The notes beneath the pieces are model-generated. The model worked only from the letters and a program-made list of their open reading frames with translations. It was not told the DNA's origin and did no database searches. A stretch of 64,000 nucleotides of DNA, taken from Desulfomonilia bacterium (GTDB lineage: Bacteria > Desulfobacterota > Desulfomonilia > UBA1062). The position numbers and the translations under genes were made by a program. Location of the stretch: contig DATCTV010000043.1 in the NCBI GenBank assembly GCA_036567785.1, positions 1 through 64,000 of the forward strand. Direction: 5' to 3'. Below are positions 4,530-54,408 of the stretch, piece after piece (the first letter of the stretch is position 1; each line of letters starts with the position of its first letter).

Positions 4530-4541
4530 GAACTGCCTTTT

Positions 4542-5043: not shown

Positions 5044-5103
5044 TTACCTTATTTAGCTTATAAGTTCGAGTGCCCTTTTAAAATCATATCGAAAATATCA
5101 GGA

Positions 5104-6054: not shown

Positions 6055-6160
6055 AAAATCAAGTTATTGAGCTGTTAAAGCTGATGAGTTGCAAAAGGAT
6101 GTCCTCATGTCTTTATTTCTTAATAGTTTGAGAGCGTATCAGCTTCATTATTTTAAAGCC

Positions 6161-6204
6161 GAAAAACCTCTCCTGCTTTTTTGTCTTGCAGGAGAGGCTT
6201 TTTA
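6161..6204 (-). terminator. Intrinsic terminator after hcp (symmetrical)
   Basis: A perfect 10-bp stem (CCTCTCCTGC with GCAGGAGAGG, 6168-6177 and 6188-6197) with a 10-base loop lies 3' of the hcp stop. On the minus strand it is followed by TTTTT; on the plus strand also by a T-run. It would stop most transcripts leaving hcp, giving hcp more mRNA than tssE, tssF and tssG. Confidence 0.85.
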
Positions 6205-6210
6205 TTTATC

Positions 6211-6708: not shown

Positions 6709-6818
6709 CGCCTATCCCTCCCTTTCTTTGTTTACTTTGTTTTAGCATAATCATGAACACGATCTTTTTATCTCAGCCTTTAATATGACCTGTAAGCCAT
6801 ATAAGGCCTATCCTGAAT

Positions 6819-8318: not shown

Positions 8319-8328
8319 CCCCTCCCTA

Positions 8329-8841: not shown

Positions 8842-8844
8842 AGC

Positions 8845-10227: not shown

Positions 10228-10237
10228 AACTTTTCAA

Positions 10238-11041
10238 TCATTCCTTATGAGGAAAATTAAAGACGATTTCCGCTAGTTCAAGAAGCGGTACGTCATTTTG
10301 TCCGATTTGAATCACATGCTGTCCCAGACCTTTGGAGAAATTCCCGCCGAGATCTTCCCATTCAGTCATCCGCCCCAGCCTTATTTCCGGAGATTTACTG
10401 AATTCAGAACCCGGATATAAAACAGGGAGATTGCAGTTTGCAGTAAGACCTTCCCATGTAGTGATGCTTGCAGGAATCCAGATAAGGTCCAGAAGGCTCT
10501 TCGGTTTTGCAACAACAAGCTCTCTTATTGCTTCGAAAGGAATCCACACATATCTGTCATGCACGAATGCCTCTAGGAAGAATTCCAGCACCGAGTCCGT
10601 GTCCTTGATGCCCAGGAATTCTTTATCTCCAATCTTCCCTGAAAGCCCCGGCCTCATGCCTGCCGCATCGTCGAACAGTTTTCGTGCCTTTTTCAGTTCA
10701 CCTTCCGCCAGGTTTTTACATGCTTCCCAGTATGCTTCAAAATATGTCGGCGCATCAGTCAGGAATGACGGGAGCCTGCTGAAAAGGCATACCTTCAGCC
10801 TTTCATCCTGCGCCCTCAGAATATCCTTATAAGCGGATACCGCAACAGCTTTTCCTGCATCAATGGTGCTTATCATGTCGAGGTGTTTGAATGCCCTGTC
10901 CCATTCACCGCATAATGCAAGCACCTGAAACATAAGTGTCCGTCTGGCGGTATCGGCAGGCTTTGCTTTGATTTCATCGGTGAGAATTCCACGGGCCTCT
11001 TCAAGCCTGCCGGCTTTTATAAGTTCTGCCGGGCCCATCAT
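10238..11041 (-). CDS. tagJ: T6SS accessory protein TagJ (ImpE/SciE)
   Basis: This 267-residue protein matches ImpE/TagJ. The N-terminal TPR-like half contains LIKAGRLEEARGILTDEI and the signature RRTLMFQVLALCGEWDRA (about residues 34-51). The second half contains YVWIPFEAIRELVV and the closing blocks of the family. TagJ binds the TssB N-terminus and modulates sheath handling in Pseudomonas; that role is inferred here. It precedes tssA by 10 bases. Confidence 0.9.
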   Translation of the reverse strand: MMGPAELIKAGRLEEARGILTDEIKAKPADTARRTLMFQVLALCGEWDRAFKHLDMISTIDAGKAVAVSAYKDILRAQDERLKVCLFSRLPSFLTDAPTYFEAYWEACKNLAEGELKKARKLFDDAAGMRPGLSGKIGDKEFLGIKDTDSVLEFFLEAFVHDRYVWIPFEAIRELVVAKPKSLLDLIWIPASITTWEGLTANCNLPVLYPGSEFSKSPEIRLGRMTEWEDLGGNFSKGLGQHVIQIGQNDVPLLELAEIVFNFPHKE

Positions 11042-11128
11042 AAAAGGATTCCCTCCATGGAGTCATTAAGACCACAACATCCTTTAAAATACAATACAAA
11101 CATCGAAATCCGACACCATTTTCCGGTC

Positions 11129-11815
11129 TTATTCATATGTCAGCAGATTCGATATATCGTTCGGGTCAAGCGGCTTCCTGAAAACGCACAGGCATGACCT
11201 TCCCTGAGTCCCACCTATGAAAACAGCCTCGGGGGAACTGGAATCAGTCTTCTTCAATCCTGCCATATAAACTGAAATCTGTTCGGCCATCCCGTCCTCA
11301 TCTCCCGGGACAAGCGGTATGAAACCGCTGCGGGGAACGTCCGCGCAGCAGCCTGATTTTTCCGGAAAAACGCCCTTGCCTGCAGCAGAAGGCGCACCAA
11401 GTCTTGACAGTCTTGCCTTGAACTCATCAAGGGAGGCGAGTTTCCTTGAAATGATGTATTCGGCCTCGGAGCATACGCCGGCCATTGCTTCAGGAATCGT
11501 TTCCCACTTTTCTTCCCATCCGGTTAGCATTCCGTATCCTGCAACAACCAGGGGATATTCCCTCCCCACGGCATCCCGGCTGTCTTTGAAAATACCGCAC
11601 GAGATCATGTCCTTTCCCCCGCATTTTAAAAAATACCTGTAGGATACATATCTTCTTCCTGCTGACCCTGTTTTCATGAATCCCTTCTCGACAAGGCCGG
11701 AAAATACCTTGAGGCATCCGCTCTGAAAACCTATGGAGATGTAATCTCTAGCAACAGGATGCTTGCCCGTCGCCCCCCACAGCCACACATCAGGTTTTCT
11801 CAGGGAACCCAGCAT
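11129..11815 (-). CDS. tagF: T6SS regulator TagF (ImpM)
   Basis: This 228-residue protein matches the TagF/ImpM family, which represses T6SS assembly after translation, often opposing threonine phosphorylation of an Fha protein. The N-terminal block GATGKHPVARDYI corresponds to the usual GKLPxxGDF pattern, followed by the FLKCGGKDMISCGIF and REYPLVVAGYG blocks. Its start overlaps the tssM end by 16 bases. It has no fused PppA phosphatase domain. Its presence beside FHA-like features elsewhere in the operon hints at post-translational control. Confidence 0.85.
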   Translation of the reverse strand: MLGSLRKPDVWLWGATGKHPVARDYISIGFQSGCLKVFSGLVEKGFMKTGSAGRRYVSYRYFLKCGGKDMISCGIFKDSRDAVGREYPLVVAGYGMLTGWEEKWETIPEAMAGVCSEAEYIISRKLASLDEFKARLSRLGAPSAAGKGVFPEKSGCCADVPRSGFIPLVPGDEDGMAEQISVYMAGLKKTDSSSPEAVFIGGTQGRSCLCVFRKPLDPNDISNLLTYE

Positions 11816-14800
11816 GATGCAATTCTTGCGGGCAGCGCTCCCGGGGCCGTAGCCTCAGCCTGGGCCTGGGCTTCCTTCGCTTTTGCCTTAAGCACGGCTT
11901 CATGCCCGCTGAATCTGTAATGCACCTTGATAAACCTTATCCCCATAGCCCTAAGAGAGGCACTTTTGCCCGGAAATTCAGAGGCGCTGAATGTGCGGCT
12001 TCCTCCTGGAAAGTCCTTGAGGAAAGAAACGAATGCATCGGGGCCTGAATAATTTTTCGTAAGCGTAATACCCCCGACATCGATTGCGAATGTAACTCCG
12101 GTGCACCTCTGCGAGGACCATGTGAACGCCTTCCTGACCGGGTAGTTCATATTGACCAGGGTCTGCAGCTGATCGCACTGGAGTTCCAGATGAGTTGCAT
12201 TCGGCTGTGTCGTAGCACCTTCGTTCGTCTCAGTCGGAAGCCCCTCGACAATGACGGTTGAATCAGGCGGAGGTCCTGAAGGTGCAGCTGAAACGGCCTG
12301 ACCTACACGCGCCCTTGAGAAAAAGCCCTTGAATGCCGCCTCGAACGGTATGGTCCTGCCGATGACCTGTCTGGCTGAATAGCCTCCGCTCACGCTCCTT
12401 GAAACGAACGGGGCGGCCGGTCCTTTTATGAATTTCGTTCCATAGCCCTCGGGCGAAAACATAAGCTGGTTAAGCTGCATGGGATCGCTTATGCCCTGCA
12501 CCTCGACCAGGACTTCCTTCTCCCATATTTCCTGAAGCCTGCAGGCGGTCTCCTGGCATGTATAGGCCCAGATGAAGTTTACCGGACCGCTCACGAGCGA
12601 CCAGAACGGTTCCGTTGAAGGTATCTGGCTTGCGCCCATGAGCATTTTAAATGCATTGACGGCAGGAAGCACCGGAGACTTCGACGGGTCTTCGTTGAAT
12701 GTCTGGCTTGCAGCCTGGAATGCGGCCTGCCTTGACGTGGTTACGATCTGAGCCGCTTTTGCAAGTGATTTTACATATTCATTCAGCGCCTTCGCCTCAT
12801 TGAATTTCGAAGGCATCTTTATCTGTTCGGTCGCACTCGTTACCTCTGACTTGTTCTTGAATTTTTCCTTAAGCTTCTCTACGGTCTCAGCCGCCTTGGA
12901 TACTGCCCCCGTATCCGCAACTGCCGCAACTGCACCGAGGGAGTCTATTTCCATGACAAGCTTCATCCATGCAGGATCATTGCCGGTGCTGTAAGGTTTC
13001 AATTCTCCGGCCATCTTTTTGATAAGGGCGATATACGGACCAGACCCTCCCATTTTCCGGGCTGCCAGTTTCCACTCCTCCTGGCCTTTCAGCCTCTGTT
13101 CCCCCTGTGGAAATACAAGTCCGAAATTATGCCAGGCTTCAAGATAAGCCGTTTTGTACCATGAAACAAACTCCTGTTTTCTGGAAGTGATAAGGACCGG
13201 GTCGGATACAGCCGTTTCCATATCAGCCAGGAAAAGATCCAGTTGCTTTTTACCGTTCGCGGTAAACGCAGGGGCCACCTGCACATCATCAAGCACCGGA
13301 TTGCTGCCCCCCCAGAATGACTTCAGGGTTACCGCATATCCAGGGTACATTTCATTTACCCACCCGGTGACCCAGTGCAGGTCCTGCCTGTTTTTAAGGA
13401 TTACCTCCAGCAGGGATTTGAGGTTTTTCATCTCGCCTTCAAGCCTGGTCTTGTCTTCTTCCCAGACAAGACGCCAGAAATAAAGCCCCATCATCTGTCC
13501 GGATACGTCGCGGTTGTCAATCCCTGGCGCAGTCAAGGCATATTTTTGCGCATCATCAGGGCCAAGGTCATCATTGATCCTGTTCCTGACCATTATCATC
13601 CGGCTTACAATATGTATGGCATAGAGCCCTGTTTCGGATTCCGACCCGGAAACGGAAATATTTGCGACCTCGGCTGAAAGCCGCCTGTCATATGGATTTA
13701 AAAGCATGGAGTCATATGTCCTGCAATACTGCTTCTTTAAAAGCTTCTCGACTTCCCTGCTCTGGGTAAGCCCGAAAGAAGGCATCCACCATGACCTGTT
13801 CTTTTTTTCAATCCTGAATATCGAATCCCTGAACTTCTCCATGTATGATGCATCAGCAGTCATTTCACCCGTTATTGCCGGTTTGTTGAAGAACTCTGCG
13901 GGAACGCCCCTTATAATTCCCAGGTTCCTCACAAATGAGAAACTCAGCAGCCCGCATATGGCTATGCCTATGGCAAGCCACGCCATAAGTCCGAGATTCT
14001 TCGTGAGCCTGTTCCATGCAAGGGCCTGCCTGGTCGGGGTGAAAAGCCCGCGTTCGGATGGCAGGATCGACGCAAAAAAGTCATGCAGGAAAAGTCCTTT
14101 GCTGGTATTGGGCAGCATGTCCCTTTCTTCGATAAGCCCGAGGCTATTCAGGAAATGCGAATATGGGCTGCCCTGCTGCTGTCCGCTCGAGAAGTACAGC
14201 CCTCTGAACATGGGCGTTTCCTGATAGGGATTGACCTCAAACACGCCTTTCAGAAACAAGGCAAGACCCGATTTCATCTTCCTGAATTCTTCAGGGAAAA
14301 GAAGAAGCGCAGGATCAAGTGACTGCGGCTTGTGGAATATAACGAGCCTGAGCGCGGCAAGGCGTTCGGACAACGTGTTCATGGCGCTGTCGATAAATGT
14401 ATTGTATTCCTGTGAAGTATTGTTGTTTATCGCGCCGAATGCCTGATTAAGGCTTTCTTCAGGAAGCTGTCCGGAAAACTGCGTCATACCCTGGATCAGG
14501 TCGCACTTGGTTACAAGAACATAAACCGGGAACTTGCTTCCGAGCACCCTCATAAGTTCGCTGATGCGCTTCTTTATTTCCCTGCCTTCCTCTTCGAGTT
14601 TTTCCGGAGCACTTTCCACAAGGCTGTCTGCGGATACGGTCACTACAAGCCCGCTTAATGGTTCCTTTTTCCTGTATTTCGCGAGCAGGTTGAGGAACTT
14701 CTGCCACTCGTCCCTGTCGCGGCCATCATCAACCGGAATCGCATACCTGCCGGCCGTATCGATTATTATGGCCTGCTCGAAGAACCACCAGTCACAGTTT

Positions 14801-15264
14801 TTTGTACCCGAAAAACCCGATACCCTGTTCATCTCGGCGAATGGCGAGGAAAGCCTTGCGCTTTTTATTGCCGTTGTCTTGCCCGAACCGCTTTCGCCGA
14901 GCACCATATACCAGGGCAGTACATAAAGAGGATTGCCCAGTTTTTTAAGGTGAGAGCCCTTAAGTGCATTTATCGCTTCCCTGAACCTGTCCTGAAGTTC
15001 GGTGAAGTTTTTCTTCTCGTCATCCTTGAGCGTTTTTATGTAGGCCTCATCCTGCTCTATTATGCGGCTTACAAACTCCTGCTCCTTCTTTTTCTTCAAT
15101 ATCTGCCTTACGATGAAGGCGGCCATAGCAAGCCCGGCGAACCCGATCAGGAGGAAGAAACCCACCCACCAGGGCCAGCCGAGAATGAGCACTATCCCGA
15201 ATGAAATAAGACAAACCAGAACTGCAGCCAGAAGGATTATCACATATTTTATCAGGCTTTTCAT
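11800..15264 (-). CDS. tssM: T6SS membrane-complex protein TssM (IcmF)
   Basis: This 1154-residue protein is TssM. Two N-terminal membrane helices (about residues 5-50) precede a cytoplasmic NTPase domain with Walker A GESGSGKTT (123-131) and a DTAGRY motif (169-174). A third helix follows (about 430-455, LMAWLAIGIAICGLLSF), then a large periplasmic part that contacts TssJ. It spans the inner membrane as part of the TssJLM envelope complex. The intact P-loop suggests NTP binding is kept. It lies directly after tssL (1-base gap). Confidence 0.97.
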   Translation of the reverse strand: MKSLIKYVIILLAAVLVCLISFGIVLILGWPWWVGFFLLIGFAGLAMAAFIVRQILKKKKEQEFVSRIIEQDEAYIKTLKDDEKKNFTELQDRFREAINALKGSHLKKLGNPLYVLPWYMVLGESGSGKTTAIKSARLSSPFAEMNRVSGFSGTKNCDWWFFEQAIIIDTAGRYAIPVDDGRDRDEWQKFLNLLAKYRKKEPLSGLVVTVSADSLVESAPEKLEEEGREIKKRISELMRVLGSKFPVYVLVTKCDLIQGMTQFSGQLPEESLNQAFGAINNNTSQEYNTFIDSAMNTLSERLAALRLVIFHKPQSLDPALLLFPEEFRKMKSGLALFLKGVFEVNPYQETPMFRGLYFSSGQQQGSPYSHFLNSLGLIEERDMLPNTSKGLFLHDFFASILPSERGLFTPTRQALAWNRLTKNLGLMAWLAIGIAICGLLSFSFVRNLGIIRGVPAEFFNKPAITGEMTADASYMEKFRDSIFRIEKKNRSWWMPSFGLTQSREVEKLLKKQYCRTYDSMLLNPYDRRLSAEVANISVSGSESETGLYAIHIVSRMIMVRNRINDDLGPDDAQKYALTAPGIDNRDVSGQMMGLYFWRLVWEEDKTRLEGEMKNLKSLLEVILKNRQDLHWVTGWVNEMYPGYAVTLKSFWGGSNPVLDDVQVAPAFTANGKKQLDLFLADMETAVSDPVLITSRKQEFVSWYKTAYLEAWHNFGLVFPQGEQRLKGQEEWKLAARKMGGSGPYIALIKKMAGELKPYSTGNDPAWMKLVMEIDSLGAVAAVADTGAVSKAAETVEKLKEKFKNKSEVTSATEQIKMPSKFNEAKALNEYVKSLAKAAQIVTTSRQAAFQAASQTFNEDPSKSPVLPAVNAFKMLMGASQIPSTEPFWSLVSGPVNFIWAYTCQETACRLQEIWEKEVLVEVQGISDPMQLNQLMFSPEGYGTKFIKGPAAPFVSRSVSGGYSARQVIGRTIPFEAAFKGFFSRARVGQAVSAAPSGPPPDSTVIVEGLPTETNEGATTQPNATHLELQCDQLQTLVNMNYPVRKAFTWSSQRCTGVTFAIDVGGITLTKNYSGPDAFVSFLKDFPGGSRTFSASEFPGKSASLRAMGIRFIKVHYRFSGHEAVLKAKAKEAQAQAEATAPGALPARIASCWVP

Positions 15265-15265
15265 A

Positions 15266-15931
15266 TTAAGGTACCAGTGTATTCGCTATATTGTTAAGGA
15301 CGAAATAGTAAATCCCGTACAAAAACCCGAAGAGAGCGACCGGGATTGAAACGATTATTATGTTCATGAGGCCGTAACCGGGGCCTGAGGAAGCCCTGAC
15401 ACGGGCATTTTCAGCCGGAGGATACGCCTCGGGGAAAAGCTGAGTCTTTTTGAGCGCAGGAACTCCGACGGAACTTCCCATGAGCACTTTAAGGTTGGAA
15501 GTCTTCAGCTGATCGAGCAGAAATCTGTCTCCCTCCTTGCAGTATCTGCCCATGAACCCCATGGCAAGACACAGGTAGTAAACCTCTCTAGCATCGTTAT
15601 TCTGCGGCCCGAGTGCATTGAGCTTTTCAAAAAATATCTCTCCTGCGGCAAGCGTCTGGTAATATTTAAGCTGAAGCGGCTCCTTCTGCCATTTCCCCTT
15701 TTCATTCCAGCCCGAACTCAGAATGGCCTCGTCAATCCAGGCGCACACGGCAAAACGGGCCAGATCGGCATCCTCCGCTCCGAAAGGCTCCAGGGCTTCA
15801 TTGTAGGCGGCTGAAAGCATGCCTTCCACCCGGGACCTTACCTGTTCGAACGGCGGCTGTTTTTTCCCGGCCGATTTCAAAAAATATGCGACATATGCAA
15901 CAAGTTCCATATAGCAGTCGGACAGTCTCAT
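15266..15931 (-). CDS. tssL: T6SS membrane-complex protein TssL (DotU)
   Basis: This 221-residue protein is TssL/DotU, a tail-anchored inner-membrane protein with a cytoplasmic helical bundle and one C-terminal membrane helix (about residues 190-212). DotU hallmarks are AVCAWIDEAILSS and YYLCLAMGFMGRYC. It has no C-terminal OmpA/peptidoglycan-binding domain, so wall anchoring must come from another protein, possibly not in this window. It follows tssK by 2 bases. Confidence 0.94.
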   Translation of the reverse strand: MRLSDCYMELVAYVAYFLKSAGKKQPPFEQVRSRVEGMLSAAYNEALEPFGAEDADLARFAVCAWIDEAILSSGWNEKGKWQKEPLQLKYYQTLAAGEIFFEKLNALGPQNNDAREVYYLCLAMGFMGRYCKEGDRFLLDQLKTSNLKVLMGSSVGVPALKKTQLFPEAYPPAENARVRASSGPGYGLMNIIIVSIPVALFGFLYGIYYFVLNNIANTLVP

Positions 15932-15933
15932 CT

Positions 15934-17313
15934 CTAGCCTCTTCCCGTGACCATGAGTTCGACCTTGAGGTCAGCCGGGGCGGAATCCCAGAATAGCGCA
16001 ATATTCTTTCCCTTGAATACATTGGACCATTGATCGGTGTTATGATCGAGCTGATAATATATGGCCCCTGCCCTTCGCGGAAGTTCCTGCGGCGGCCTGT
16101 CCAGTTTCTTAAGAGCAACCCCCGGCAGTGCCCTTACGATAAGTATGGGCAGCGATTCCCTCGATGATATTTTGGCGCCTGCCTGAATCGAGGTTGCCAT
16201 CGTCTTTGCATCCGACGAGGATTGAACCACCAGGTAGAACCTGTTCTTTCCCTCGAATATCGGCGCCGGAAGATCCGCGGAATAGTATGTTCCGTCATAT
16301 ATGAGCCCGTAGACATATTCAGGCCCTGCCGTTATCTCATCTAGGAGTGAAGTAATAACACCCTGGGCTTTCATAAAGCATGACCCAAGGTTTGTGTGCT
16401 GATACTTAGGGAAAACCTCATCAGTGGAATCACCGGCCCAGTTGTATTTTTCAGAAAAACCCGAAAGCTCCCCGATAATCTGCTTGAGAAGCCCGAAAGC
16501 GTTGAGCGGGTGACTCTGGGACGTCTCAGTCATCAGATAAAGGAGCGGCAGATAGCGGTTCAACGTCATAAGCGCCAGCAGATAGACCATATCACGTGAG
16601 CCGAAATCAGATGTCTGTATGCCGCGGTCCCTCTTGTATCCTTCAAGCTGGAAGGCTTTTGCTGCTATCTGGTCGCGAATCTCTCTTATAAGCTTCTCAA
16701 GCTGTTTTGATGATGAGAGAGTAAGGCTGGGTGGGATAAACGTCCCGGAAAGCACAATTTCTTCACCTCTTCTCTCAAGTTGGGCGACAGGAATTATCTC
16801 ATAATCACCGAGCCTGTCTTTCTCGGTCTCCCAGAAAACCCTTATCGCGTATCTTATGGACCTCACTTCGGAAGAAGGCCCGTCAAGGTGAAGATCGGAA
16901 ACCTGCTCGGGTTCGAGGAATGAAACGTATCTTGTGTTTATGCCGGTTACGGTGTCTTTTGCTGATATATTCGTTACATTCCTGCCCCCATTTTCCAGCT
17001 TTTTTATACCGATATAAACCGTAAGCGGTTTGCCGCCCTCGATCTGGTCTGCATCGAATTTTCTTGTCTCGCACACGGCATTTTCATGAATCCTGGCATA
17101 GCTCATATCGGGAAAAATGAAATCTCCTTCCGCTATCTGGAAACTGCCCGTTCCAAGGGAGGCTTCCATTATTTCGAGCCTGCCGACACCCCACATCTCG
17201 CTGGTCATGTAGCGTATAAGGGGTTCGGTCTGTGACTGCGAATAAAGCTGAAGGAGCTGCAAATGCTGAGGCTGAAGGAAAAGCCCCTGGTGCCATAATA
17301 GCGGTTTTTCCAT
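15934..17313 (-). CDS. tssK: T6SS baseplate-membrane adaptor TssK
   Basis: This 459-residue protein is TssK (ImpJ/VasE), which links the baseplate to TssL/TssM. The start PLLWHQGLFLQPQHLQ (about residues 4-19) is the family signature. The C-terminal domain (from about 330) contains the NRFYLVVQSS and RALPGVALKKLDRPP blocks. Length is normal. It follows tssJ by 14 bases. Confidence 0.96.
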   Translation of the reverse strand: MEKPLLWHQGLFLQPQHLQLLQLYSQSQTEPLIRYMTSEMWGVGRLEIMEASLGTGSFQIAEGDFIFPDMSYARIHENAVCETRKFDADQIEGGKPLTVYIGIKKLENGGRNVTNISAKDTVTGINTRYVSFLEPEQVSDLHLDGPSSEVRSIRYAIRVFWETEKDRLGDYEIIPVAQLERRGEEIVLSGTFIPPSLTLSSSKQLEKLIREIRDQIAAKAFQLEGYKRDRGIQTSDFGSRDMVYLLALMTLNRYLPLLYLMTETSQSHPLNAFGLLKQIIGELSGFSEKYNWAGDSTDEVFPKYQHTNLGSCFMKAQGVITSLLDEITAGPEYVYGLIYDGTYYSADLPAPIFEGKNRFYLVVQSSSDAKTMATSIQAGAKISSRESLPILIVRALPGVALKKLDRPPQELPRRAGAIYYQLDHNTDQWSNVFKGKNIALFWDSAPADLKVELMVTGRG

Positions 17314-17327
17314 AATTTGTTTTCCTC

Positions 17328-17849
17328 TTATTTGGAAATTATTTCTTTCGGTCCGAGGTCCAGGGTCAATTCAAGTTTTCCCGGCACCTTCTTCTTTTTC
17401 ATCTTGAGGAAACCATATTTTTCATACACTTCCGGTATCTGATAAAGCCTTATGATGTTGTTCTTTTCCAGTTTGTAATACCCGGCAACAATCGCCACAT
17501 ACTTTGCGCCTTCAGCCCTGTCGACAAGCGTTTTCTGGTCCTTGCCGGGATCGACGAAAATCCTTGTGCATGCAATCGCACTGAAATCGAAATTGCTGCA
17601 CTCCAGAAGCTTGTAAAGCCCCTGTTCATTTCCGGCAAGCTGGTTGAACATCGACGGATCCTTCAGCTGATACAGGCATATTGCAAGCTTATGCCCTTTG
17701 TTTCCCTTCAGGTTGAGTTTGGCATCGGACTTTATGTCAAGGACTATGGCATCCTTCTGATAGACCCACTGCACCACATCCGGTGAAGATGCGCATGAAC
17801 TCATTATAAAAACGGCGAGCAGCACGACAGCATATCTTAGAGTTCTCAT
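17328..17849 (-). CDS. tssJ: T6SS outer-membrane lipoprotein TssJ
   Basis: This 173-residue lipoprotein has a signal peptide and lipobox (VFIMSSC, Cys near residue 20) with Ala at +2, as expected for outer-membrane sorting. The transthyretin-like domain shows LAICLYQLKDPSMFNQL and the closing LELTLDLGP. I start it at 17849, behind an AGGGGGT site, rather than at the upstream in-frame codon at 17897, which would bury the signal peptide. TssJ anchors TssM to the outer membrane. Confidence 0.92.
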   Translation of the reverse strand: MRTLRYAVVLLAVFIMSSCASSPDVVQWVYQKDAIVLDIKSDAKLNLKGNKGHKLAICLYQLKDPSMFNQLAGNEQGLYKLLECSNFDFSAIACTRIFVDPGKDQKTLVDRAEGAKYVAIVAGYYKLEKNNIIRLYQIPEVYEKYGFLKMKKKKVPGKLELTLDLGPKEIISK

Positions 17850-17853
17850 AATA

Positions 17854-18594
17854 TTACCCCCTGTTTTCCATGAATAGTTTCTGGCAGTTCTTTTCAAACT
17901 GCCTCAATAAATCTTCCATGAAACGGCCGGAATCATACCATTTCCTGCACTTCATATATTTTTCCTCGAATATTTCAAAGGACTCGGCCTTTTTAAGCGG
18001 CCCTATTTTAAGGCCTGTCTGTACAGGCTCCATCTGTTTCGGATCGAGCACGGCGAGTACATTTCCGAGAACGGTTTTCGCAGCATCCTTGAATGCCTGC
18101 TGAGTTATAAGAAAGGCCTTCTTGACCTGTGAAAGATATTCTTCCAGCGATTTTTCCGAAGGCCCGTCTCCGAGGTTCGTACCTATTATGTGGCGGATCG
18201 TTTCATCGCCTTCTCCCGGCGTTCCAAGCGTCGAATTGATAAGGCCTACAAGCTGATTGAGTGAATCGAATATTATGTTAAGAGACTGCGCCAGCTTTTC
18301 AGGAAGAATCTCGGCCGGCATATCCGATGCGCTTCTGCCCAGTATCAGCGGAATAAGCCTCTGCATCAACAATGCGTCGGCATTGATGCTCTCTTCCGGT
18401 ACGGGTTCTTCCTGCCCGCCTGCAAGGATATTTTTAATTCCTTCTATAACAGAAAGCTTATCCCTCAGGTCCTGACCTTCAAGCTCCCCCTGCAGAAGGG
18501 CCTCTATGGAAAATTCGGCGACAGCAGGATTAAGGCTGTATATCTTTTTTATCTCTTCTGTCAGTTTTTTCAAATCAGAAGGCAATGTCCCCAT
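17854..18594 (-). CDS. T6SS accessory protein like the C-terminal domain of Fha/TagH, without FHA domain
   Basis: This 246-residue protein resembles the conserved C-terminal region of T6SS FHA-domain proteins (Fha1/TagH). The relevant segments are LEEYLSQVKKAFLITQQAF, KTVLGNVLAVLDPKQMEP, and the closing EKYMKCRKWYDSGRFMEDLL with LLRQFEKNCQKLF. There is no FHA domain; the N-terminal 80 residues are helical and unassigned. It is cytoplasmic, with no signal peptide. It starts 21 bases after the preceding gene and ends 4 bases before tssJ, so it is part of the operon. Its link to Fha is from memory of the family and needs profile comparison. Confidence 0.6.
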   Translation of the reverse strand: MGTLPSDLKKLTEEIKKIYSLNPAVAEFSIEALLQGELEGQDLRDKLSVIEGIKNILAGGQEEPVPEESINADALLMQRLIPLILGRSASDMPAEILPEKLAQSLNIIFDSLNQLVGLINSTLGTPGEGDETIRHIIGTNLGDGPSEKSLEEYLSQVKKAFLITQQAFKDAAKTVLGNVLAVLDPKQMEPVQTGLKIGPLKKAESFEIFEEKYMKCRKWYDSGRFMEDLLRQFEKNCQKLFMENRG

Positions 18595-18615
18595 CCTTTA
18601 CCTGAATCAATCGTC

Positions 18616-20631
18616 TTATTTTTTTATTATCACAGTCTCACTGAGTTCATCATCCTTATTTTCGGGTTTCTTTGTCCTGGCCCCATCCGGTTTTGCAGTT
18701 TCGGCAAGGGGTTCTGGGACCTTTTCCATATTCTGCGTCATTATGATTGTCGCCTCAAGAAGGTCTTCCCGGCTTACGGGCGGTTCAGGGTTCTGTCCGG
18801 AAGGCTCTGCCGTTCTCTTTATTTGGCCCCTAAGCGTAGATGAATTAAGTATTACCGTTTCATGAAAATCTTCCGGCTCTTCTATAATTTTTGTTTCCTG
18901 TACCGGTTTGTCTGCAGTTATAATAATGGTCTTTTCAAACGATTCCTCCCGGACAGATTCTTCTCCGGGAAGCGAAGTTTTATCATAATCCATCCATTTC
19001 TCTTTGATGCTGTCGAGGATACCGGCAATCCTTGCATTTGATTCGTCATCAACCGCAGCTTCCTTTTTTTCCACGATACCGGCCGGAATTTCATGATGGG
19101 CCCCGGACGGTTCGAAGAGCATCTTCATTATCCTATCCTTAAGCGCATTTAATGAAGAGACAAATTCATCTTCTGGAAAACCGCCATCGCCCGCATAGCC
19201 ATGAAGCATAAGAGATATGCATGTTTGAACCGCCTCGTTCCAGATATCCGCATACTCTTCCCTTATGATTACACCTTCCGGTTTATAAAAGATATTTTCA
19301 GGACGGAATAAGCCATCGACTGTCAAATCCAGGCCCAAAGGTTCACCCCTGACAAAGGCATTGAGCATTTCCAGGAGACGGGCATCAATAGTGTCCCTTC
19401 CGGCGGATGGATTTGATATGAGAATGTATATCAGCATTCTTCCGAAGAAGTAGGCGAAAAAGGATTTCGGGGCACCGGGAAGCATCTGAAATGATTCGTC
19501 CGCTTCAGGGCCTTTGAGCAGGATGGTCCTGAAATTCCAGAAAGCTGGCAGGAGACCGCTTCCTTCTGGCAGTGTCACCCAAATCGATTCCGGACTCAAT
19601 CCAAGGTCAGGATATATGAGGCCATCTGAACCTTTTACAATCCGGAACAGCAAATCAGCGGCAAATGAAAGCTTCAAATAAAGTATCTCCAGAAACACCC
19701 TGTCGTCGCCATCAAACAACAGTATTGACGAATACCCCTTACCCTTGTTAAAGGCCCTGAGGGCATTCAGACGGCCCGTAAGCCCCCTGGATTCAAGACT
19801 GTCCTCGATTTCCTCATATGGCGCGCCTGAAAGCAGCAGAAGAAAATCCAGGGCATTGATTGTACCGGCTTCGCTCAGAACCGCATGAAACGGATAAAAG
19901 GAGAGGCTCACTATATTCTTGAGGGCAGACCATCCTTCCCCGTAGCACTCAGTTCTATGTTCACACGAGGGGCAGGGTATATTCTGATCGGCCTTTACCA
20001 GCAGATTTACATACCCCTGCACAAGAGCGCTTTTGTCCCTTACATTTGCAGGTTCTTCACCGGAGATTTCAGCTGCATAAAAAACCGGGGTTCGGCCCTG
20101 AGAATGACATTCCGGACAGTAAAGATACCGTTTCAATGAGCTTGCGTATGAAGCGAGACTATTTTCCTTCAGCAAATATTCATCCCTGCAGATATCGAAA
20201 CCTGACGAACAGACCGGACATACCGGAGTAAAATACACCTGCTGTTTAATACAGTAGAAAACTGGGTCAAACGGCAGATACACCCCATGAGGGTCCGTCC
20301 TTGCATTAAGAAGCATGCCGTTTTCATCTTCGAGCGCTTTTGTGATTATCCTTTGCCAGCTTTCATCGAGTGTTTTATTCGTAATGTCACCGAGTGTGCT
20401 GCCGTATTGCCGGTAATCATCCCGTGAAATTGTCAGGAAAGCCTCTTTGATGACAGCTCCCGCAGATGTTGCAACATTTGCCCTGATAACACTGGTAAAC
20501 GGAAGAGATGAGTCTGCCGTAACAAACGGATATGATAGGCCTTCCGGTTGGGCAGCCTTAGCCGCAAGATCAAGCTTAAGGTGGATGCCGTTTCCGGTAT
20601 CACCCAAAAAGACTGTGAATGGATTATTCAT
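18616..20631 (-). CDS. Unrecognised T6SS-operon protein with cysteine pairs and a phospho-threonine-like tail
   Basis: This 671-residue protein opens the T6SS operon. I do not recognise its family. It has zinc-ribbon-like cysteine groups: C127; C138/C141/C148; C172/C175; and C220/C223/C229. The middle (about 240-500) is a globular domain without known motifs. The last 110 residues are acidic and disordered-looking and carry five T-x-x-[ILM] motifs at T568, T580, T592, T628 and T666 (for example EKTIII, HETVIL, SETVII). T-x-x-I/L is the preferred site for FHA domains when phosphorylated. No signal peptide or membrane helix is seen. It may be a regulatory or scaffold protein controlled by a Thr kinase encoded elsewhere. 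Confidence 0.75.
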   Translation of the reverse strand: MNNPFTVFLGDTGNGIHLKLDLAAKAAQPEGLSYPFVTADSSLPFTSVIRANVATSAGAVIKEAFLTISRDDYRQYGSTLGDITNKTLDESWQRIITKALEDENGMLLNARTDPHGVYLPFDPVFYCIKQQVYFTPVCPVCSSGFDICRDEYLLKENSLASYASSLKRYLYCPECHSQGRTPVFYAAEISGEEPANVRDKSALVQGYVNLLVKADQNIPCPSCEHRTECYGEGWSALKNIVSLSFYPFHAVLSEAGTINALDFLLLLSGAPYEEIEDSLESRGLTGRLNALRAFNKGKGYSSILLFDGDDRVFLEILYLKLSFAADLLFRIVKGSDGLIYPDLGLSPESIWVTLPEGSGLLPAFWNFRTILLKGPEADESFQMLPGAPKSFFAYFFGRMLIYILISNPSAGRDTIDARLLEMLNAFVRGEPLGLDLTVDGLFRPENIFYKPEGVIIREEYADIWNEAVQTCISLMLHGYAGDGGFPEDEFVSSLNALKDRIMKMLFEPSGAHHEIPAGIVEKKEAAVDDESNARIAGILDSIKEKWMDYDKTSLPGEESVREESFEKTIIITADKPVQETKIIEEPEDFHETVILNSSTLRGQIKRTAEPSGQNPEPPVSREDLLEATIIMTQNMEKVPEPLAETAKPDGARTKKPENKDDELSETVIIKK

Positions 20632-43742: not shown

Positions 43743-43983
43743 TAATACACCTCCGTTTAACGACCCCTAAGCCTGGCAAAGCATCAAGGCCTTTTGTTTT
43801 GTTTCTGGAACACGATTAGCTAACGAAACCTCGGAAAAAACTTCTTATTGGTTTTACCATGTTTCATGCCGATAATCCTTCCAGTTGAAGAATAATAAAA
43901 AGCAACTGCATTTTAAAGTCAAGCTAAATGAAGAAGGACAAATAAATTTTACAGTGTACACTTTTTATGCAAGAATATACCGG

Positions 43984-45978
43984 ATGAATTTCAAGCTTGT
44001 ATCAGACTATAAACCCAGCGGTGATCAGCCCGGGGCAATCGATTCCTTATGCGAAGGCATAGAAAAAGGAGTACGTGACCAGGTGCTTCTCGGCGTGACG
44101 GGTTCAGGCAAAACATTCACCATGGCCTGCGTAATAGAGCGCATGAAGAGACCTGCACTTGTTATCGCACCCAACAAGATACTGGTGGCGCAGCTATACG
44201 GTGAATTCAGGGAGCTGTTTCCAGATAACGCGGTCGAATATTTTGTAAGTTACTATGATTATTATCAGCCCGAGGCATATGTACCGTCCCGGGATCTTTA
44301 TATAGAAAAGGATTCGGACGTTAACGAGGATATAGACAAGTTAAGGCACAGGGCCACACGCGCGCTTTTCGAACGCGAGGATTGCATCATCGTGGCGTCC
44401 GTTTCATGCATCTACGGCCTGGGCTCTCCGGAGGCTTATTCCGGGATGTTGCTCTTTCTTGAACAGGGCCGGGAGGAAGGCCGCGACAATATCTTGAAAA
44501 AGCTTGTCGAAATTCAATACGAAAGGGGTGATTTCGATTTTCACCGCGGTTCATTCAGAGTACGCGGCGATACGATAGACATATATCCGGTTCATGAAGA
44601 GGAAAAAGCCGTCAGGGTGGAGCTCTTCGGCGATGTCATAGAAACCATATGGGAGATCGATGCGCTCAAAGGTTCTAAAATCAGGAAGCTTTCACATTTC
44701 CCGATATATCCTGCCTCTCACTATGTCACACCGGAAAGCCAGATGAAGAATGCGATAGCCACGATCAAGGAAGAGCTTGCCGACAGGCTCGATTTCTTCA
44801 GGTCAGAAAACAGGCTGGTGGAAGCACAGAGACTTGAAGAACGCACGCGCTATGACCTCGAACTGCTTATGGAGACGGGCATATGCAAGGGAATTGAAAA
44901 TTATTCCCGCCATCTTACAGGAAGGAAAGAGGGTGAACCGCCACCTACTCTCATGGATTATCTACCCAGGCACAGCCTTGTATTTCTTGATGAATCTCAT
45001 GTCGGCGTCCCTCAACTGATAGGCATGTACAGAGGCGACCACAGGAGAAAAGCCACACTCGTTGACTATGGTTTCAGGCTCCCCTCCGCTCTGGACAACA
45101 GGCCGCTCAGGTTCGACGAGTTCAACGCCCTTGTTAATAAGATCATTTATGTCTCGGCAACACCCGGCGAATATGAACTCAAGCAGACAAAAGGGCAGTT
45201 TACCGAACAGGTGGTAAGGCCAACCGGGCTTGTCGATCCCGAAATAGAAGTCAGGAAGGCCTCCACTCAGATTGACGACCTTCGTGCCGAGATAGAAAAG
45301 GTAACTGCCCGCGGAGGCAGAGTCCTTGTTACAACTCTCACCAAGCGGATGTCCGAGGAGCTGACCGATTATCTCGTCAATCTCGACGTGAAAGCGAAAT
45401 ACATGCACTCGGACATTGACACCCTTGAAAGGATCGAACTGGTGAACGGCCTGCGCGAAGGAAAATTCGACGTGCTTGTAGGCATCAACCTCCTTCGTGA
45501 AGGGTTGGATCTTCCCGAGGTCGAGCTTGTGGCAATCCTTGATGCGGACAAGGAAGGCTTCCTGCGTTCGGAACGTTCACTGGTGCAGACTTCCGGCAGG
45601 GCCTCCAGAAACATAAACGGCCGAGTCATATTCTATGCCGACAGGATCACCGGTTCCATGGAAAGGGCCATGAACGAGACAAAGCGCCGCCGCGATAAGC
45701 AGCTTCTTTATAATAAAGAGCACGGCATAACTCCGAAGAGCATTCAGAAAAACATACGCGATATCCTTTCTTCAATTTATGAGCGCGACTATGCCGACAT
45801 GAGCGCCGAGGTCAAAACATCACAGGGCACAATCAACATAAGACAGATCGAGAAGACCATAAAACAGCTGGAAAAGAATATGACCGAAGCGGCCAGAGCT
45901 CTCAGATTCGAAGAGGCGGCTGAATTCCGCGATGAAATAAAAAGATTAAAGCGCATCAGGCTTGCGGTCGAAGATTAA
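43984..45978 (+). CDS. uvrB: Excinuclease ABC subunit B
   Basis: This 664-residue protein is UvrB. It has Walker [10 protein letters not shown] near residue 40, the beta-hairpin region [20 protein letters not shown], helicase motifs including [22 protein letters not shown] and QTSGRASRN, and a C-terminal UVR domain that binds UvrC ([16 protein letters not shown]). It recognises and verifies DNA damage with UvrA in nucleotide excision repair. I start at the conserved [16 protein letters not shown] at 43984; the frame is open 99 bases further upstream but that part is not conserved. Confidence 0.97.
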
Positions 45979-45981: not shown

Positions 45982-46725
45982 ATGATGACATGTCCTCTTT
46001 CCGGTTACCGGATAATAAAAACAGGCGATACAACAATCATTGTAAAAGAATATCTTCCTGAAAATATCATCCCGGCATCAGGCCCCATAGGCAGGCCGTC
46101 GTCCATGACAGGCCGGGGCAACATGCGGTTGCTGGGCGATGACATGATCGTCAGGGAGCTGGTGCACGGAGGTTTGTTCGGAAAGGTCACTGGAAGACTA
46201 TTTCTCAGCAAATCAAGGAGCGTGAGAGAACTCAGGATCAGCAATTATCTGATAGGAAACGGCATACGCACACCCGAGATACCTGCCGTCAGATTTATCA
46301 GAAGCGGGATATTCTATTCAATCGATGTCATTTCCCGGCTTGTGCCTAATTCCATCGACCTCCTCACATGGCTTGAGAAATTCAGGGCCGAGCAGAAAGG
46401 AGAAGTCTTGAGGTTTGCGCAAAATAACTGGCAGGACAATCTTTTCACAACGATTTTTCATGAAACAGGCTCCCTTGTCCGCAGGATGCACGATCTGGGC
46501 GTCTGGCATGCGGACCTGCACCTTAAGAACATACTGCTGGACGAACATATGAATCCGTGGATTATCGACCTGGACAAAGCCTTGCATCTGCCCGTACTCC
46601 CGGGTTTCATGCGGCGGATGAACCTCAATCGCTTTTTCCGCTCATGCAAAAAATGGACTGGCAAGGGAATGATAAACCTGCTGCCGGATTATAGAACAAT
46701 TTTCCTTGACGGATATAACAGCTGA
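45982..46725 (+). CDS. Kdo kinase-like (KdkA/WaaP family) lipopolysaccharide kinase
   Basis: This 247-residue protein has the small-kinase fold of KdkA/InaA/WaaP enzymes that phosphorylate sugars of the lipopolysaccharide core. The catalytic loop is VWHADLHLKNILLD (about residues 173-186), and the metal-binding Asp is in WIIDLDKA. The N-terminal ATP-binding half shows VRELVHGGLFGK and SVRELRISNYL. Three bases separate it from uvrB, so it is likely cotranscribed. The role in 3-deoxy-manno-octulosonate phosphorylation is inferred. Confidence 0.8.
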   Translation: MMTCPLSGYRIIKTGDTTIIVKEYLPENIIPASGPIGRPSSMTGRGNMRLLGDDMIVRELVHGGLFGKVTGRLFLSKSRSVRELRISNYLIGNGIRTPEIPAVRFIRSGIFYSIDVISRLVPNSIDLLTWLEKFRAEQKGEVLRFAQNNWQDNLFTTIFHETGSLVRRMHDLGVWHADLHLKNILLDEHMNPWIIDLDKALHLPVLPGFMRRMNLNRFFRSCKKWTGKGMINLLPDYRTIFLDGYNS

Positions 46726-48411: not shown

Positions 48412-48438
48412 AAAGTCCCTGCCTGGCAGGGACTTTTG
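48412..48438. terminator. Terminator after the GPI-PLD homologue
   Basis: A tight stem (AGTCCCTGC with GCAGGGACT, 3-base loop) with TTTT on the plus side and TTTAATTT on the minus side lies 24 bases past the stop of the minus-strand gene that ends at 48458. It separates that gene from plsC. Confidence 0.75.
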
Positions 48439-48457: not shown

Positions 48458-50983
48458 CTAAAGGCCTGCGGTCATTATAAAACAGATGCTGCTGCCATTA
48501 CTTTCTGACGACGGATTACCAATTTCGGTTGCGCCCTCTCCTTCCACAGGATTATCCGGATCATCCGGATCATCGGGCCGAACTGTGCCGTCAGGAGACA
48601 GCATCACATAAACCGCACCCTCAAGCCTGCCGTTTTCGCCGGTTGCCCTTGGTGCCGATATAACCGTATCCGTTGCATTATCGGCATTGAAGTCAAGAAA
48701 TGTATAGCACGAACCGAACTGCGATTTTTTTCCGCCTTCCCTGAGGGTCATTTCCGGCCTGGCCATTGAGGAGAGTATCGTTCCGGCAGGCATTGTACTG
48801 CCGCCTTTGAAATAATATACGACACCTGATTCGAGCTTTGCATTGACCGCTCTCATGGTCTCACTGACCCACAGGTCATCAATTCCGTCGGCATTGAAGT
48901 CGGAAAAGGCCACCTGCGCCCCGAATCTGGAAAAGGCCCTGACGCCGTTTATAACTGCAATCGGCTTGACATCGGATATTTTAAGGTCGCCGCTGAGGGT
49001 GGAAAGGCTTGCAAGCATAACAGAGCCCGGCTGATCGATAAGCTGAAAGAGTCCCAGCATCATCAGGTCTTTTGCGGGCGATGACACCGCAAGAACCGTT
49101 TTGCCCGTTCCATAAGGATCTCCGGTTGAAAATGAAGAACCCAAACCTTCAAACTCGCTTTCGCCGGTAAGCGTGAACTGTGGCGTCGTACCGGCCTTTG
49201 TTATGCGAAGGCCGGCAAGGTTAAAACCGTAAACCCTGCCGGTATTCTGCTTGCCGGAATTGTAGGCGGGAGCACCCACAATAAGCATTCCATCCGATTT
49301 ATTTACAACTTCAACGTGACAGCCGAACCAGGAATACGCCTGTTCCCCGTTCAATACGCACCATGCGTTATCGAGGGTCATGCTTCCCCGTGGAATGTTT
49401 TTTGATGAGTTGAATATCGCAATGCTGCCGCACTGCTGCATTTTTCCTTTGCCCGAAACAGCAACTTCTCTGAAAGGAGCGCCGACGATCAAGTCGGGAT
49501 TCCCGTCATTGTTCAGGTCTCCTGCTGAAAGTGAAAATCCCAGAGCGGATGTCTTTGCCGTATCGATAATGATAACGGACGGCTCCACTGCAATGCCTTT
49601 TTCCGAGCCGGGGAAAACATAAACCTTGCCGTTATAGAGCCTTTTACCGGCACCCTCCGAAGGCGCCGAGACGACAAGGTCTTCATATCCATCGAGGTTG
49701 AAGTCCAATACCGTTACCGCCCAGCCGAACCTGCCTCCGTCCTCATTCCCTGTCAAAACTGCATCGGCGTTACCGAAATCAATCCCCGAAGCGAAATATG
49801 TTTTTGCATCCTTTCTGCCGTAAACGACATATACGGCCCCGAGATCGGGATGTCCGGGCGTTTCGAAGCCGGGTGCACCGATTATAAGATCATCGATACC
49901 GTCATTGTTCAAATCACCTCTGGCAAGGCTTTTCCCCGTATAGGAATATGCCTTTGCGCCTATTGTCATGAAATCGGCCTGTTCAGGCTTCTTGGCAACA
50001 TATGCTTCCGGGGTTTCTGCTGTGCTTTTTTCAAGGCTCAACATGACGCCGCCTGCAACAACGGCCTCTCTTACATTAATCCCTTTTGTATCAAGTTTAT
50101 TTCGGGCTTCCGTAACAAAACTCTCTTCGGCTCCGGCATTTGCCAGGAAAAAACCGGCATTATCAGTTTCAACACCGTTTTCCATCCAGTCTATCGCTTC
50201 TTCCCATCTTAAAAGAGTCCAGAAGGACATATCGTCCAGACCACCCATGAAGAAGCCCTGGAGTTCATCAATAAGGAAAGTCGACTTTCCAGCCGGTATC
50301 GAAAAGAGAAGATAACCTGCATTCGTCTCGGCTTCTGTCGCTGCAAACATGAGTTTGTTGGCATTTGCGATGAATCTGGAAGTCACATCGGGAAATCCCA
50401 TTTCATGATAAACCTCGGCCATGTCATCGGCAGGCACCCACATTTTATCCTCTATCCAGGACATATCGAACTCGTGCGCGCATGCAATGTCCCCTCCAAA
50501 ATCAGCTATCTGATGTGCGTCATCGAAACTGCCATTGAAATTCTGTTGCCCCATGATACCCACAAAGCCGTCACCTGCATGCCAGGCCACGTCAGCTGCG
50601 TGGTGGCACATGAGCCCCAGAACAAAGGCTGCATAGCGCCCTGCTTTTTCGGCTTTTGCAGGGTCAGAGGAATTTATGTCAGCCTTGTATTTCTGGTGAA
50701 AACGATTTGCAGCGGCCTTGATGAAAGGGTACCAGTGGGCAAGCTCCGATTCGTCCTGATAACCCGTCCAGTAACCCCAGTCAGGGAATCTGCATCCGGC
50801 CTGGATTGCATCCCTGTATTTTTCGACAAATCCATTGTATTCGGGATAAGCGCTTGAATGAAACGCCACGGATGCGCGTTCGCTTACCTCGGTATGAGTG
50901 GCCATTCCTGCTGCCAAGAGGCTTTTGCAGGTCAACAGGACAAGGGCGATAACAAACCAGACGCTAAAACTTGTTTTCCTCAT
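48458..50983 (-). CDS. Bacterial homologue of GPI-specific phospholipase D (zinc phospholipase domain plus FG-GAP propeller)
   Basis: This 841-residue secreted protein has a signal peptide (about residues 1-25), a zinc-dependent phospholipase C-type domain (about 26-330), and an FG-GAP beta-propeller (about 340-810) with calcium loops such as GDLNNDGIDDLIIGAP. The N-terminal domain follows vertebrate GPLD1 block by block: MATHTEVSERA, QAGCRFPDWG, LMCHHAADVAWHAGDG, AHQIADFGGDI, FFMGGLDDMSFWT. Candidate zinc ligands H30, D68, H83, H127/H128, D131, H135, H157 and D161 are all present. Total length is close to GPLD1. It would cleave a phosphoinositol- or phospholipid-type bond outside the cell. 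The C-terminus has an Asp/Pro linker and ends SSICFIMTAGL. Confidence 0.88.
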   Translation of the reverse strand: MRKTSFSVWFVIALVLLTCKSLLAAGMATHTEVSERASVAFHSSAYPEYNGFVEKYRDAIQAGCRFPDWGYWTGYQDESELAHWYPFIKAAANRFHQKYKADINSSDPAKAEKAGRYAAFVLGLMCHHAADVAWHAGDGFVGIMGQQNFNGSFDDAHQIADFGGDIACAHEFDMSWIEDKMWVPADDMAEVYHEMGFPDVTSRFIANANKLMFAATEAETNAGYLLFSIPAGKSTFLIDELQGFFMGGLDDMSFWTLLRWEEAIDWMENGVETDNAGFFLANAGAEESFVTEARNKLDTKGINVREAVVAGGVMLSLEKSTAETPEAYVAKKPEQADFMTIGAKAYSYTGKSLARGDLNNDGIDDLIIGAPGFETPGHPDLGAVYVVYGRKDAKTYFASGIDFGNADAVLTGNEDGGRFGWAVTVLDFNLDGYEDLVVSAPSEGAGKRLYNGKVYVFPGSEKGIAVEPSVIIIDTAKTSALGFSLSAGDLNNDGNPDLIVGAPFREVAVSGKGKMQQCGSIAIFNSSKNIPRGSMTLDNAWCVLNGEQAYSWFGCHVEVVNKSDGMLIVGAPAYNSGKQNTGRVYGFNLAGLRITKAGTTPQFTLTGESEFEGLGSSFSTGDPYGTGKTVLAVSSPAKDLMMLGLFQLIDQPGSVMLASLSTLSGDLKISDVKPIAVINGVRAFSRFGAQVAFSDFNADGIDDLWVSETMRAVNAKLESGVVYYFKGGSTMPAGTILSSMARPEMTLREGGKKSQFGSCYTFLDFNADNATDTVISAPRATGENGRLEGAVYVMLSPDGTVRPDDPDDPDNPVEGEGATEIGNPSSESNGSSICFIMTAGL

Positions 50984-53112: not shown

Positions 53113-54408
53113 TCAATTGTCCCTGAACCTGTATAAAATCTCGCCCGCATTCCTGACAACCAGCATATCCTCATTCTGTTCCCCAATCGGATTTCTGGGA
53201 TTTATCTCAAGTGGATTATAATAGTTCAGATTAATCTTTTTGCAGACAAGGGGGTGAATCCCTGTTGCAAGAGTAGCGTTTATACGGGGATGCTCCTTCC
53301 CTTCTTGATATGTCCCGTCAGGCTTTAAAAGTGTCGAATGTGCAAGAACCATCAAAGGATAGCCCTTATAATAATCCCACTTCTTCAGGAAAAAATCCCT
53401 CACATGATACCCTATTTTTTCCATGAGCATGCCGTGGGCAAAAGAAAGCCCCCTCACATGCGGGGCATAGATAATCAATTCCCCATCATCCTTTACGATC
53501 TGTTCAACCTTCTGCAGTCCCTTCACTCCGACCCAGAGATCGGGATAGCTTTTGGGCAGTACTGCAATCACTTTCGAATATCTCTTATCCGAATATACGA
53601 TATGCACCCGTAAGGACAGCTCAACCGCTTTTGTCCATGCCTCATCATGTTCACCGATAAAAAGACCGCTCACACCGTATTCCCTGACAACAGGGCAGAT
53701 ATACAGCTTGGATGCGGGAATGAATGAAGCCGCCCTGTCGATTATCCTCCTGACCGATGTGTCCCTAACCCCTAGAATATCCCGCCTCATATGCAACGCT
53801 CCAAGCCAGCTTATATAATTCATCACTTCCGGACTGCCGGTTCCTGAAAAGAAATATTTGTTGCCTCCTGAAAACCCGGCAAGTTCATGGGGCGAGACGG
53901 GACTTAGGACGATGATCATGTCATAATTGAGCACCTTTCGGTTCAGCCGCACAGGAAGTTCCGCCTTGAGCATACCCGATGTAAGACTGTCTGTTTCATC
54001 CTCGCTGATTGTCCCGAGAGTTGCATAATTTTCAGGAAGGTTCCACTGGTGAGTGAATATGTTCACATCCCTGTAGATGCCTTCTGCAAGCTGCCTTGGC
54101 GTAATGCCGAAGTGTTTGTTTATATCTTCACTGGACATGGGTGCATAAGTACCGGATGAAATCAGATAATCTATGGATTTGGCCTTTCCTGCAAGCCCTT
54201 CATGTATAAGCCTGAAGAAAAGAGGCATTGGCAGTATCCGGGTTGAGTCAGGGACGATAACAAGCACCTTTTGTCCCGTCATGTCCCACTTGGTGAAGGC
54301 CTGCTGAAGAAAATCCTCAATATCTTCGTTTGTCAGAAAAGCATCCATCAATCCTTTTCCGATAACCATGATTTCCTTTTGAAGAGATATTTTTCCTGTG
54401 TCAAGCAT
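53113..54408 (-). CDS. LarA-family (nickel-pincer lactate racemase-like) protein
   Basis: This 431-residue protein belongs to the LarA/DUF2088 family. Blocks are VLVIVPDSTRILPMP at the N-terminus, and SPHELAGFSGGNKYFF (about residues 174-189), with the His and Lys that bind the nickel-pincer cofactor in LarA. The GTHxPM block is GTYAPM here, so the position of one of two proposed catalytic histidines is Tyr. It would racemise or epimerise a 2-hydroxy acid if active. No larB, larC or larE is nearby. It is divergent from the next gene. Confidence 0.85.
   Translation of the reverse strand: MLDTGKISLQKEIMVIGKGLMDAFLTNEDIEDFLQQAFTKWDMTGQKVLVIVPDSTRILPMPLFFRLIHEGLAGKAKSIDYLISSGTYAPMSSEDINKHFGITPRQLAEGIYRDVNIFTHQWNLPENYATLGTISEDETDSLTSGMLKAELPVRLNRKVLNYDMIIVLSPVSPHELAGFSGGNKYFFSGTGSPEVMNYISWLGALHMRRDILGVRDTSVRRIIDRAASFIPASKLYICPVVREYGVSGLFIGEHDEAWTKAVELSLRVHIVYSDKRYSKVIAVLPKSYPDLWVGVKGLQKVEQIVKDDGELIIYAPHVRGLSFAHGMLMEKIGYHVRDFFLKKWDYYKGYPLMVLAHSTLLKPDGTYQEGKEHPRINATLATGIHPLVCKKINLNYYNPLEINPRNPIGEQNEDMLVVRNAGEILYRFRDN

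What the first reader, a model, noticed from the sequence alone, without database searches (positions are those of the whole stretch)
48458..50983. Full-length bacterial homologue of vertebrate GPI-specific phospholipase D
Both the zinc phospholipase domain and the FG-GAP propeller are present in the same order and about the same total length as GPLD1, with the His/Asp positions that are expected to bind zinc all kept. Bacteria do not make GPI anchors, so the substrate must differ: host or protist GPI-proteins, or bacterial phosphoinositol or phospholipid. A secreted protein of this kind beside a T6SS-bearing genome could serve interaction with eukaryotes.
Basis: partly seen in the sequence, partly recalled or inferred. 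Interest (0 to 1): 0.75.

Follow-up and report, generated by a model that had tools for sequence, protein, structure and literature searches.

The report
Bacterial full-length relative of human GPLD1
A bacterium of the Desulfobacterota type carries an apparently intact, exported enzyme that matches the human GPI-anchor-cutting enzyme GPLD1 from end to end, with every histidine known to be needed for activity kept, although bacteria make no GPI anchors, so its real target is open.

Summary
The gene at 48458-50983 (-) is an intact 841-aa ORF with a Pfam zinc phospholipase C domain (residues 29-171) followed by FG-GAP repeats. It aligns colinearly with human GPLD1: 30% identity over 811 of 817 residues, 297 bits, against at most 26.9 bits for 200 shuffles. 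The four histidines whose mutation kills GPLD1 (His29/125/133/158) are H30/H127/H135/H157 here. A sister-genus gene (L004) is 46% identical to human in the catalytic domain. The gene is rare: only these 2 of 42 genomes in its class, and no other two-domain protein in 395 genomes of its phylum or about 700 genomes of two other phyla. The T6SS idea is not supported: a T6SS lies about 28 kb away, but this protein has a Sec-type signal sequence and a C-terminal CFIxTA tag shared with exported-type phosphoesterases and a nucleotidase of the same genome. Most likely it is an exported zinc/calcium phospholipase of the GPI-PLD family. Its substrate is unknown: eukaryotic GPI or inositol lipid, or scavenged phospholipid. 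A new bacterial member of a known family; the catalytic-domain model was too weak to test the zinc site in 3D.

The parts
48458..50983 (-). GPLD1-like gene, 841 aa
   Evidence: intact ORF; PF00882 + FG-GAP; 30% identity to human GPLD1 over 811 aa
50912..50983 (-). probable Sec signal peptide, residues 1-24 (MRKTSFSVWFVIALVLLTCKSLLA|A)
   Evidence: read by eye: basic start, hydrophobic core, small residues; the alignment puts residue 25 at the mature N-terminal Cys of GPLD1. No signal-peptide predictor was available
50174..50911 (-). zinc phospholipase C-like catalytic domain, residues 25-270
   Evidence: Pfam PF00882 residues 29-171; 33% identity to human GPLD1, 49% to the sister gene L004
50894..50896 (-). 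H30 = human His29 (essential)
   Evidence: mutagenesis title cited in PMC13241479
50780..50782 (-). D68, predicted zinc ligand
   Evidence: invariant in 3 of 3
50735..50737 (-). H83 = human His88, predicted zinc ligand
   Evidence: invariant in 3 of 3
50603..50605 (-). H127 = human His125 (essential)
50591..50593 (-). D131, predicted zinc ligand
   Evidence: invariant in 3 of 3
50579..50581 (-). H135 = human His133 (essential)
50513..50515 (-). H157 = human His158 (essential)
50501..50503 (-). D161, predicted zinc ligand, in the GPLD1-type motif DFGGD
   Evidence: invariant in 3 of 3
48596..49948 (-). FG-GAP beta-propeller, residues 346-796
   Evidence: Pfam; well-predicted beta blades in the model; Foldseek best hits are integrin alpha propellers, E 1.1e-13
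49889..49915 (-). Dx[DN]xDG calcium motif 1 (D357)
   Evidence: DLNNDGIDD
49679..49705 (-). calcium motif 2 (D427)
   Evidence: DFNLDGYED
49493..49519 (-). calcium motif 3 (D489)
   Evidence: DLNNDGNPD
48875..48901 (-). calcium motif 4 (D695)
   Evidence: DFNADGIDD
48461..48484 (-). C-terminal tag CFIMTAGL, last 8 residues (C834-L841)
   Evidence: same CFIxTA tail, 8-11 residues long, on 7 other long ORFs of this genome; pattern 14 hits against 0 for the reversed control
48412..48436 (.). palindrome after the stop codon, likely terminator
   Evidence: read by eye (AAAGTCCCTGCC/GGCAGGGACTTT); not called by the scanner, which needs a loop of 3 or more

Best explanation
The gene encodes an exported, zinc-dependent phosphodiesterase of the GPI-phospholipase D (GPLD1) family. 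Shown by sequence: the same two domains in the same order and register as GPLD1, all mutationally essential histidines, and at least four calcium-binding propeller motifs. Inferred: the Sec system carries it out of the cytoplasm, the C-terminal CFIxTA tag retains it at or sorts it to the cell surface, three zinc ions held by the His/Asp set (plus the new N-terminus, as in Bacillus cereus PLC) activate water, and the enzyme hydrolyses a phospholipid head-group phosphodiester, by kinship the inositol-phosphate bond. The calcium-loaded propeller stabilises the protein and positions it on membrane or glycan. Because the host makes no GPI anchors, the likely substrates are outside the cell: GPI or inositol lipids of protists and eukaryotic debris, or other phospholipids scavenged together with the co-tagged phosphoesterases.
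For: Domains above curated cut-offs; end-to-end alignment to human GPLD1; essential His kept; the sister gene in a second MAG keeps the same residues and has 46% catalytic identity to human, so the active site is under selection in two genomes; propeller model matches integrin; same tag on two metallophosphoesterases, a 5'-nucleotidase and a PepX-type hydrolase.
Against: No activity data. The AF2 catalytic-domain model is weak (mean pLDDT 59, pTM 0.66). Its PDB search gave no significant hit, only non-significant ones to zinc-PLC/S1-nuclease folds among the best TM-scores (8cqm, 2wxu, 5fb9). The N-terminal Cys of GPLD1 is Ala here. The linker (271-345) is only 15% identical to human. PLD rather than PLC bond choice cannot be read from sequence.
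Confidence: 0.65

Rival explanations
1. General phospholipase C/D for nutrient scavenging: it cleaves bulk phospholipids of lysed cells to feed phosphate and lipid to the cell, and GPI specificity arose only in animals.
For: Shares its C-terminal tag with metallophosphoesterases and a 5'-nucleotidase, a set that would release phosphate from organic phosphodiesters and monoesters; zinc-PLC superfamily members are often broad phospholipases (general knowledge).
Against: The GPLD1-type parts beyond the zinc ligands are also conserved (DFGGD, FLxEQFQxYFxGGLDDM), with 46% identity between L004 and human, which suggests a shared substrate geometry. The gene is not in an operon with phosphatases.
Confidence: 0.35
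2. Eukaryote-directed enzyme that strips GPI-anchored proteins from protists or hosts, recently acquired from a eukaryote.
For: High similarity to an animal enzyme and an extremely patchy bacterial distribution.
Against: The window and L004 proteins differ from each other (49% in the catalytic domain) almost as much as L004 differs from human, and their genomic contexts differ; the small tree cannot order human and the two bacterial rows (support 45/0; AU p 0.22). Eukaryotic sequences other than human were not available.
Confidence: 0.2
3. T6SS effector delivered into neighbouring cells.
For: The window holds T6SS core genes tssF, tssB, tssC, tssA, tssM and impE.
Against: Visible Sec-type signal sequence, C-terminal CFIxTA tag, about 28 kb from the cluster with unrelated genes between.
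Confidence: 0.03
4. Non-enzymatic surface protein (integrin-like adhesin or scavenger) in which the phospholipase domain is a relic.
For: A large propeller; mammalian GPLD1 has catalysis-independent carrier roles (PMC13241479).
Against: All essential His and predicted ligands kept in two divergent genes.
Confidence: 0.08

Closest known systems
Mammalian GPI-specific phospholipase D, GPLD1
   Same: Same domain order, length, essential His29/125/133/158 and propeller calcium motifs; 30% identity end to end
   Different: Bacterial host without GPI; Ala instead of Cys at the mature N-terminus; Asp/Pro/Ser-rich C-terminal extension ending in CFIMTAGL; few other Cys in common; linker diverged
Zinc-dependent phospholipase C family (PF00882; B. 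cereus PLC type)
   Same: Profile match above cut-off and the full expected ligand pattern
   Different: Extra propeller; GPLD1-type insert and motifs; no significant PDB sequence match even with a profile
FG-GAP/integrin-alpha propellers in bacteria
   Same: Propeller with Dx[DN]xDG calcium blades (PMC3123361)
   Different: Fused here to a phospholipase domain; most bacterial hits found have the propeller alone

Membership tests
GPI-phospholipase D (GPLD1) family | N-terminal zinc phospholipase domain followed by FG-GAP propeller, colinear over full length | tested here: met
GPI-phospholipase D (GPLD1) family | Catalytic histidines 29, 125, 133, 158 | tested here: met
   with the mutagenesis title cited
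GPI-phospholipase D (GPLD1) family | Calcium-binding propeller motifs | tested here: met
   four Dx[DN]xDG motifs at residues 357, 427, 489, 695
GPI-phospholipase D (GPLD1) family | Secreted with N-terminal signal peptide | tested here: inconclusive
   visible by eye and in register with GPLD1; no predictor run
[quoted passage not shown]
   needs biochemistry
Zinc-dependent phospholipase C superfamily | Profile match and three-zinc ligand set | tested here: met
   47.3 bits against 26.8; ligands invariant
Zinc-dependent phospholipase C superfamily | All-helical zinc-PLC fold in 3D | tested here: inconclusive
   all-helical model; Foldseek hits to 8cqm, 2wxu, 5fb9 not significant
T6SS effector | No Sec signal; linked to VgrG/Hcp/PAAR or carries an effector marker | tested here: not met
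   signal sequence seen; no such domain in Pfam scan; not adjacent to the T6SS genes
CFI-box-CTERM (NF041770) | Full 69-position C-terminal domain beginning CFIATAAYG | tested here: not met
   no NF041770 match in the window protein; only the first residues of the box are present. Full-length boxes occur on related phosphoesterases in G001 and G004

The most novel reading that the evidence does not exclude
A bacterial lineage uses a true GPI-phospholipase D, orthologous to the animal enzyme and passed between bacteria and eukaryotes, to attack GPI or inositol glycolipids of eukaryotic cells around it, held at the cell surface by a previously undescribed short C-terminal CFIxTAxx tag.
Probability: 0.15. 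Interest if true: 0.8.

Novelty: new member of a known kind. Interest (0 to 1): 0.5.

Why it matters
No solved structure of the GPLD1 catalytic domain was found: a profile that includes the human sequence finds no chain in the PDB copy. A non-glycosylated bacterial relative that keeps all essential residues could therefore give a tractable model for an enzyme of medical interest. It also raises a testable question about what a GPI-PLD does in an organism without GPI, and in which direction the gene moved between bacteria and animals.

Tried and rejected
Viral contigs, phages and plasmids: no full-length relative, only propeller hits. Genome-contig scan with the single sequence found only FG-GAP proteins. 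Full-length AF2 with 3 rows gave a good propeller but an unusable catalytic domain; a domain-only run with 6 rows was better but still weak. A rooted 5-row tree was too small and long-branched to place human GPLD1. Literature searches found no paper on bacterial GPI-PLD in the held library; this is not proof that none exists. The first CFI-tag pattern search across the class was off by one base and void; it was repeated correctly.

Full report
Observation. The ORF at 48458-50983 (-) is intact, 841 aa, ATG start, TAG stop. Pfam finds Zn_dep_PLPC (residues 29-171, 47.3 bits, cut-off 26.8) and FG-GAP repeats (130.5 bits). PDB sequence search gives integrin alpha chains for the propeller only. The N-terminal part has no match in the PDB, even with a profile that contains the human sequence, so no GPLD1 catalytic structure seems to be deposited.

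Comparison with GPLD1. Each half matches its counterpart on its own (142 and 169 bits), while 200 shuffled versions reach at most 26.9 bits. They align to H30, H127, H135 and H157. The further invariant residues D68, H83, D131 and D161 complete a pattern that, from general knowledge of B. cereus PLC, corresponds to its three-zinc site. Four Dx[DN]xDG calcium motifs lie in the propeller; PMC3123361 describes such motifs in integrin-like propellers and notes GPI-PLD among them.

A second bacterial copy. A sister-genus genome (G002) carries a 999-aa relative (L004:1474-4473): 49% identical to the window protein and 46% to human in the catalytic domain, 42% and 37% in the propeller. It keeps the Cys at the mature N-terminus found in human GPLD1. 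It ends in thrombospondin-3-like repeats, MCFISSA, a hydrophobic stretch and lysines. Its neighbours differ from those of the window gene, so synteny is not conserved.

Distribution. With the catalytic-domain profile, only these two of 42 genomes of the class match. Among 395 genomes spread over the phylum, the other hits are single-domain PF00882 proteins (L021, L025, L026). 398 and 299 genomes of two other phyla give none; the tool warns that an empty result without a positive control is weak, though the same profile does ring in G000 and G002. Plasmids, phages and IMG/VR give none with both domains. The genome also has one short PF00882 paralogue without signal or propeller (L018). The pattern is patchy and fits transfer or repeated loss; a five-row tree cannot say which, nor order human against the two bacterial rows.

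Structure. The AF2 propeller is confident and matches integrin alpha (E 1.1e-13). The catalytic domain alone gives an all-helical model of pTM 0.66. Its Foldseek hits are not significant; the zinc-PLC relatives 8cqm and 2wxu and the S1 nuclease 5fb9 appear among them with TM-scores (0.21-0.30 by query length) at the top of the list, which is only suggestive.

Localisation and neighbourhood. The N-terminus looks like a Sec signal by eye. The last eight residues, CFIMTAGL, belong to a short tag. The pattern CFIxTA occurs 14 times in this genome against 0 for the reversed pattern, and eight long ORFs, this one included, end with it 8-11 residues before the stop. Co-tagged proteins include two metallophosphoesterases, a 5'-nucleotidase and a PepX_C hydrolase. 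With a stop codon fixed after two residues, the pattern occurs 24 times in 13 of the 24 genomes of the family (control 0) and 6 times in the other 95 genomes (a few of these hits are not real C-termini). Related phosphoesterases in G001 and G004 carry the full NCBIfam CFI_box_CTERM domain (NF041770) at the same place, so the short tag looks like a cut-down form of that box. The flanking genes are an LPP20-type lipoprotein and an HtrA-like protease upstream, and an acyltransferase and DUF169 protein downstream; nothing points to a dedicated pathway. The T6SS genes lie at about 1.3-20.6 kb.

Conclusion. The protein is a bona fide bacterial member of the GPLD1 family by sequence and very probably an exported zinc enzyme. 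Whether it cuts GPI, other inositol lipids or bulk phospholipid is not decidable here.

Noticed in passing
window 48461-48484 (-); L028, L030-L032, L034-L036, L049, L051-L053, L055-L061, L066-L071: A short C-terminal tag, (G/S-rich linker)-CFI-x-TA-x-x-stop, on secreted-type proteins. 24 hits with stop in 13 of 24 genomes of the family against 0 for the reversed control. It resembles the first residues of NF041770 CFI_box_CTERM, and homologous phosphoesterases carry either the full box (L043, L044) or only the 8-residue tail (L032, L035). Possibly an undescribed minimal sorting or anchoring signal.
   Followed up: partly
L004:1474-4473: The sister-genus GPLD1-like protein has MCFISSA followed by a transmembrane-like stretch and lysines, a third form of the CFI tail; L045 (CFISTATYGS plus TM) is similar.
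   Followed up: partly
window 1323-20631 (-): T6SS cluster (TssF, TssC, TssB, TssA, ImpE, TssM found by Pfam).
   Followed up: partly
L018:1486-2400: A short PF00882 paralogue (304 aa, no signal, no propeller) elsewhere in the same genome.
   Followed up: partly
window 45982-46725 (+): Kdo/WaaP-type lipopolysaccharide kinase directly after a UvrB-like gene (43885-45978).
   Followed up: no
window 53113-54408 (-): Stand-alone lactate racemase N-terminal-domain (Lar_N) protein.
   Followed up: no
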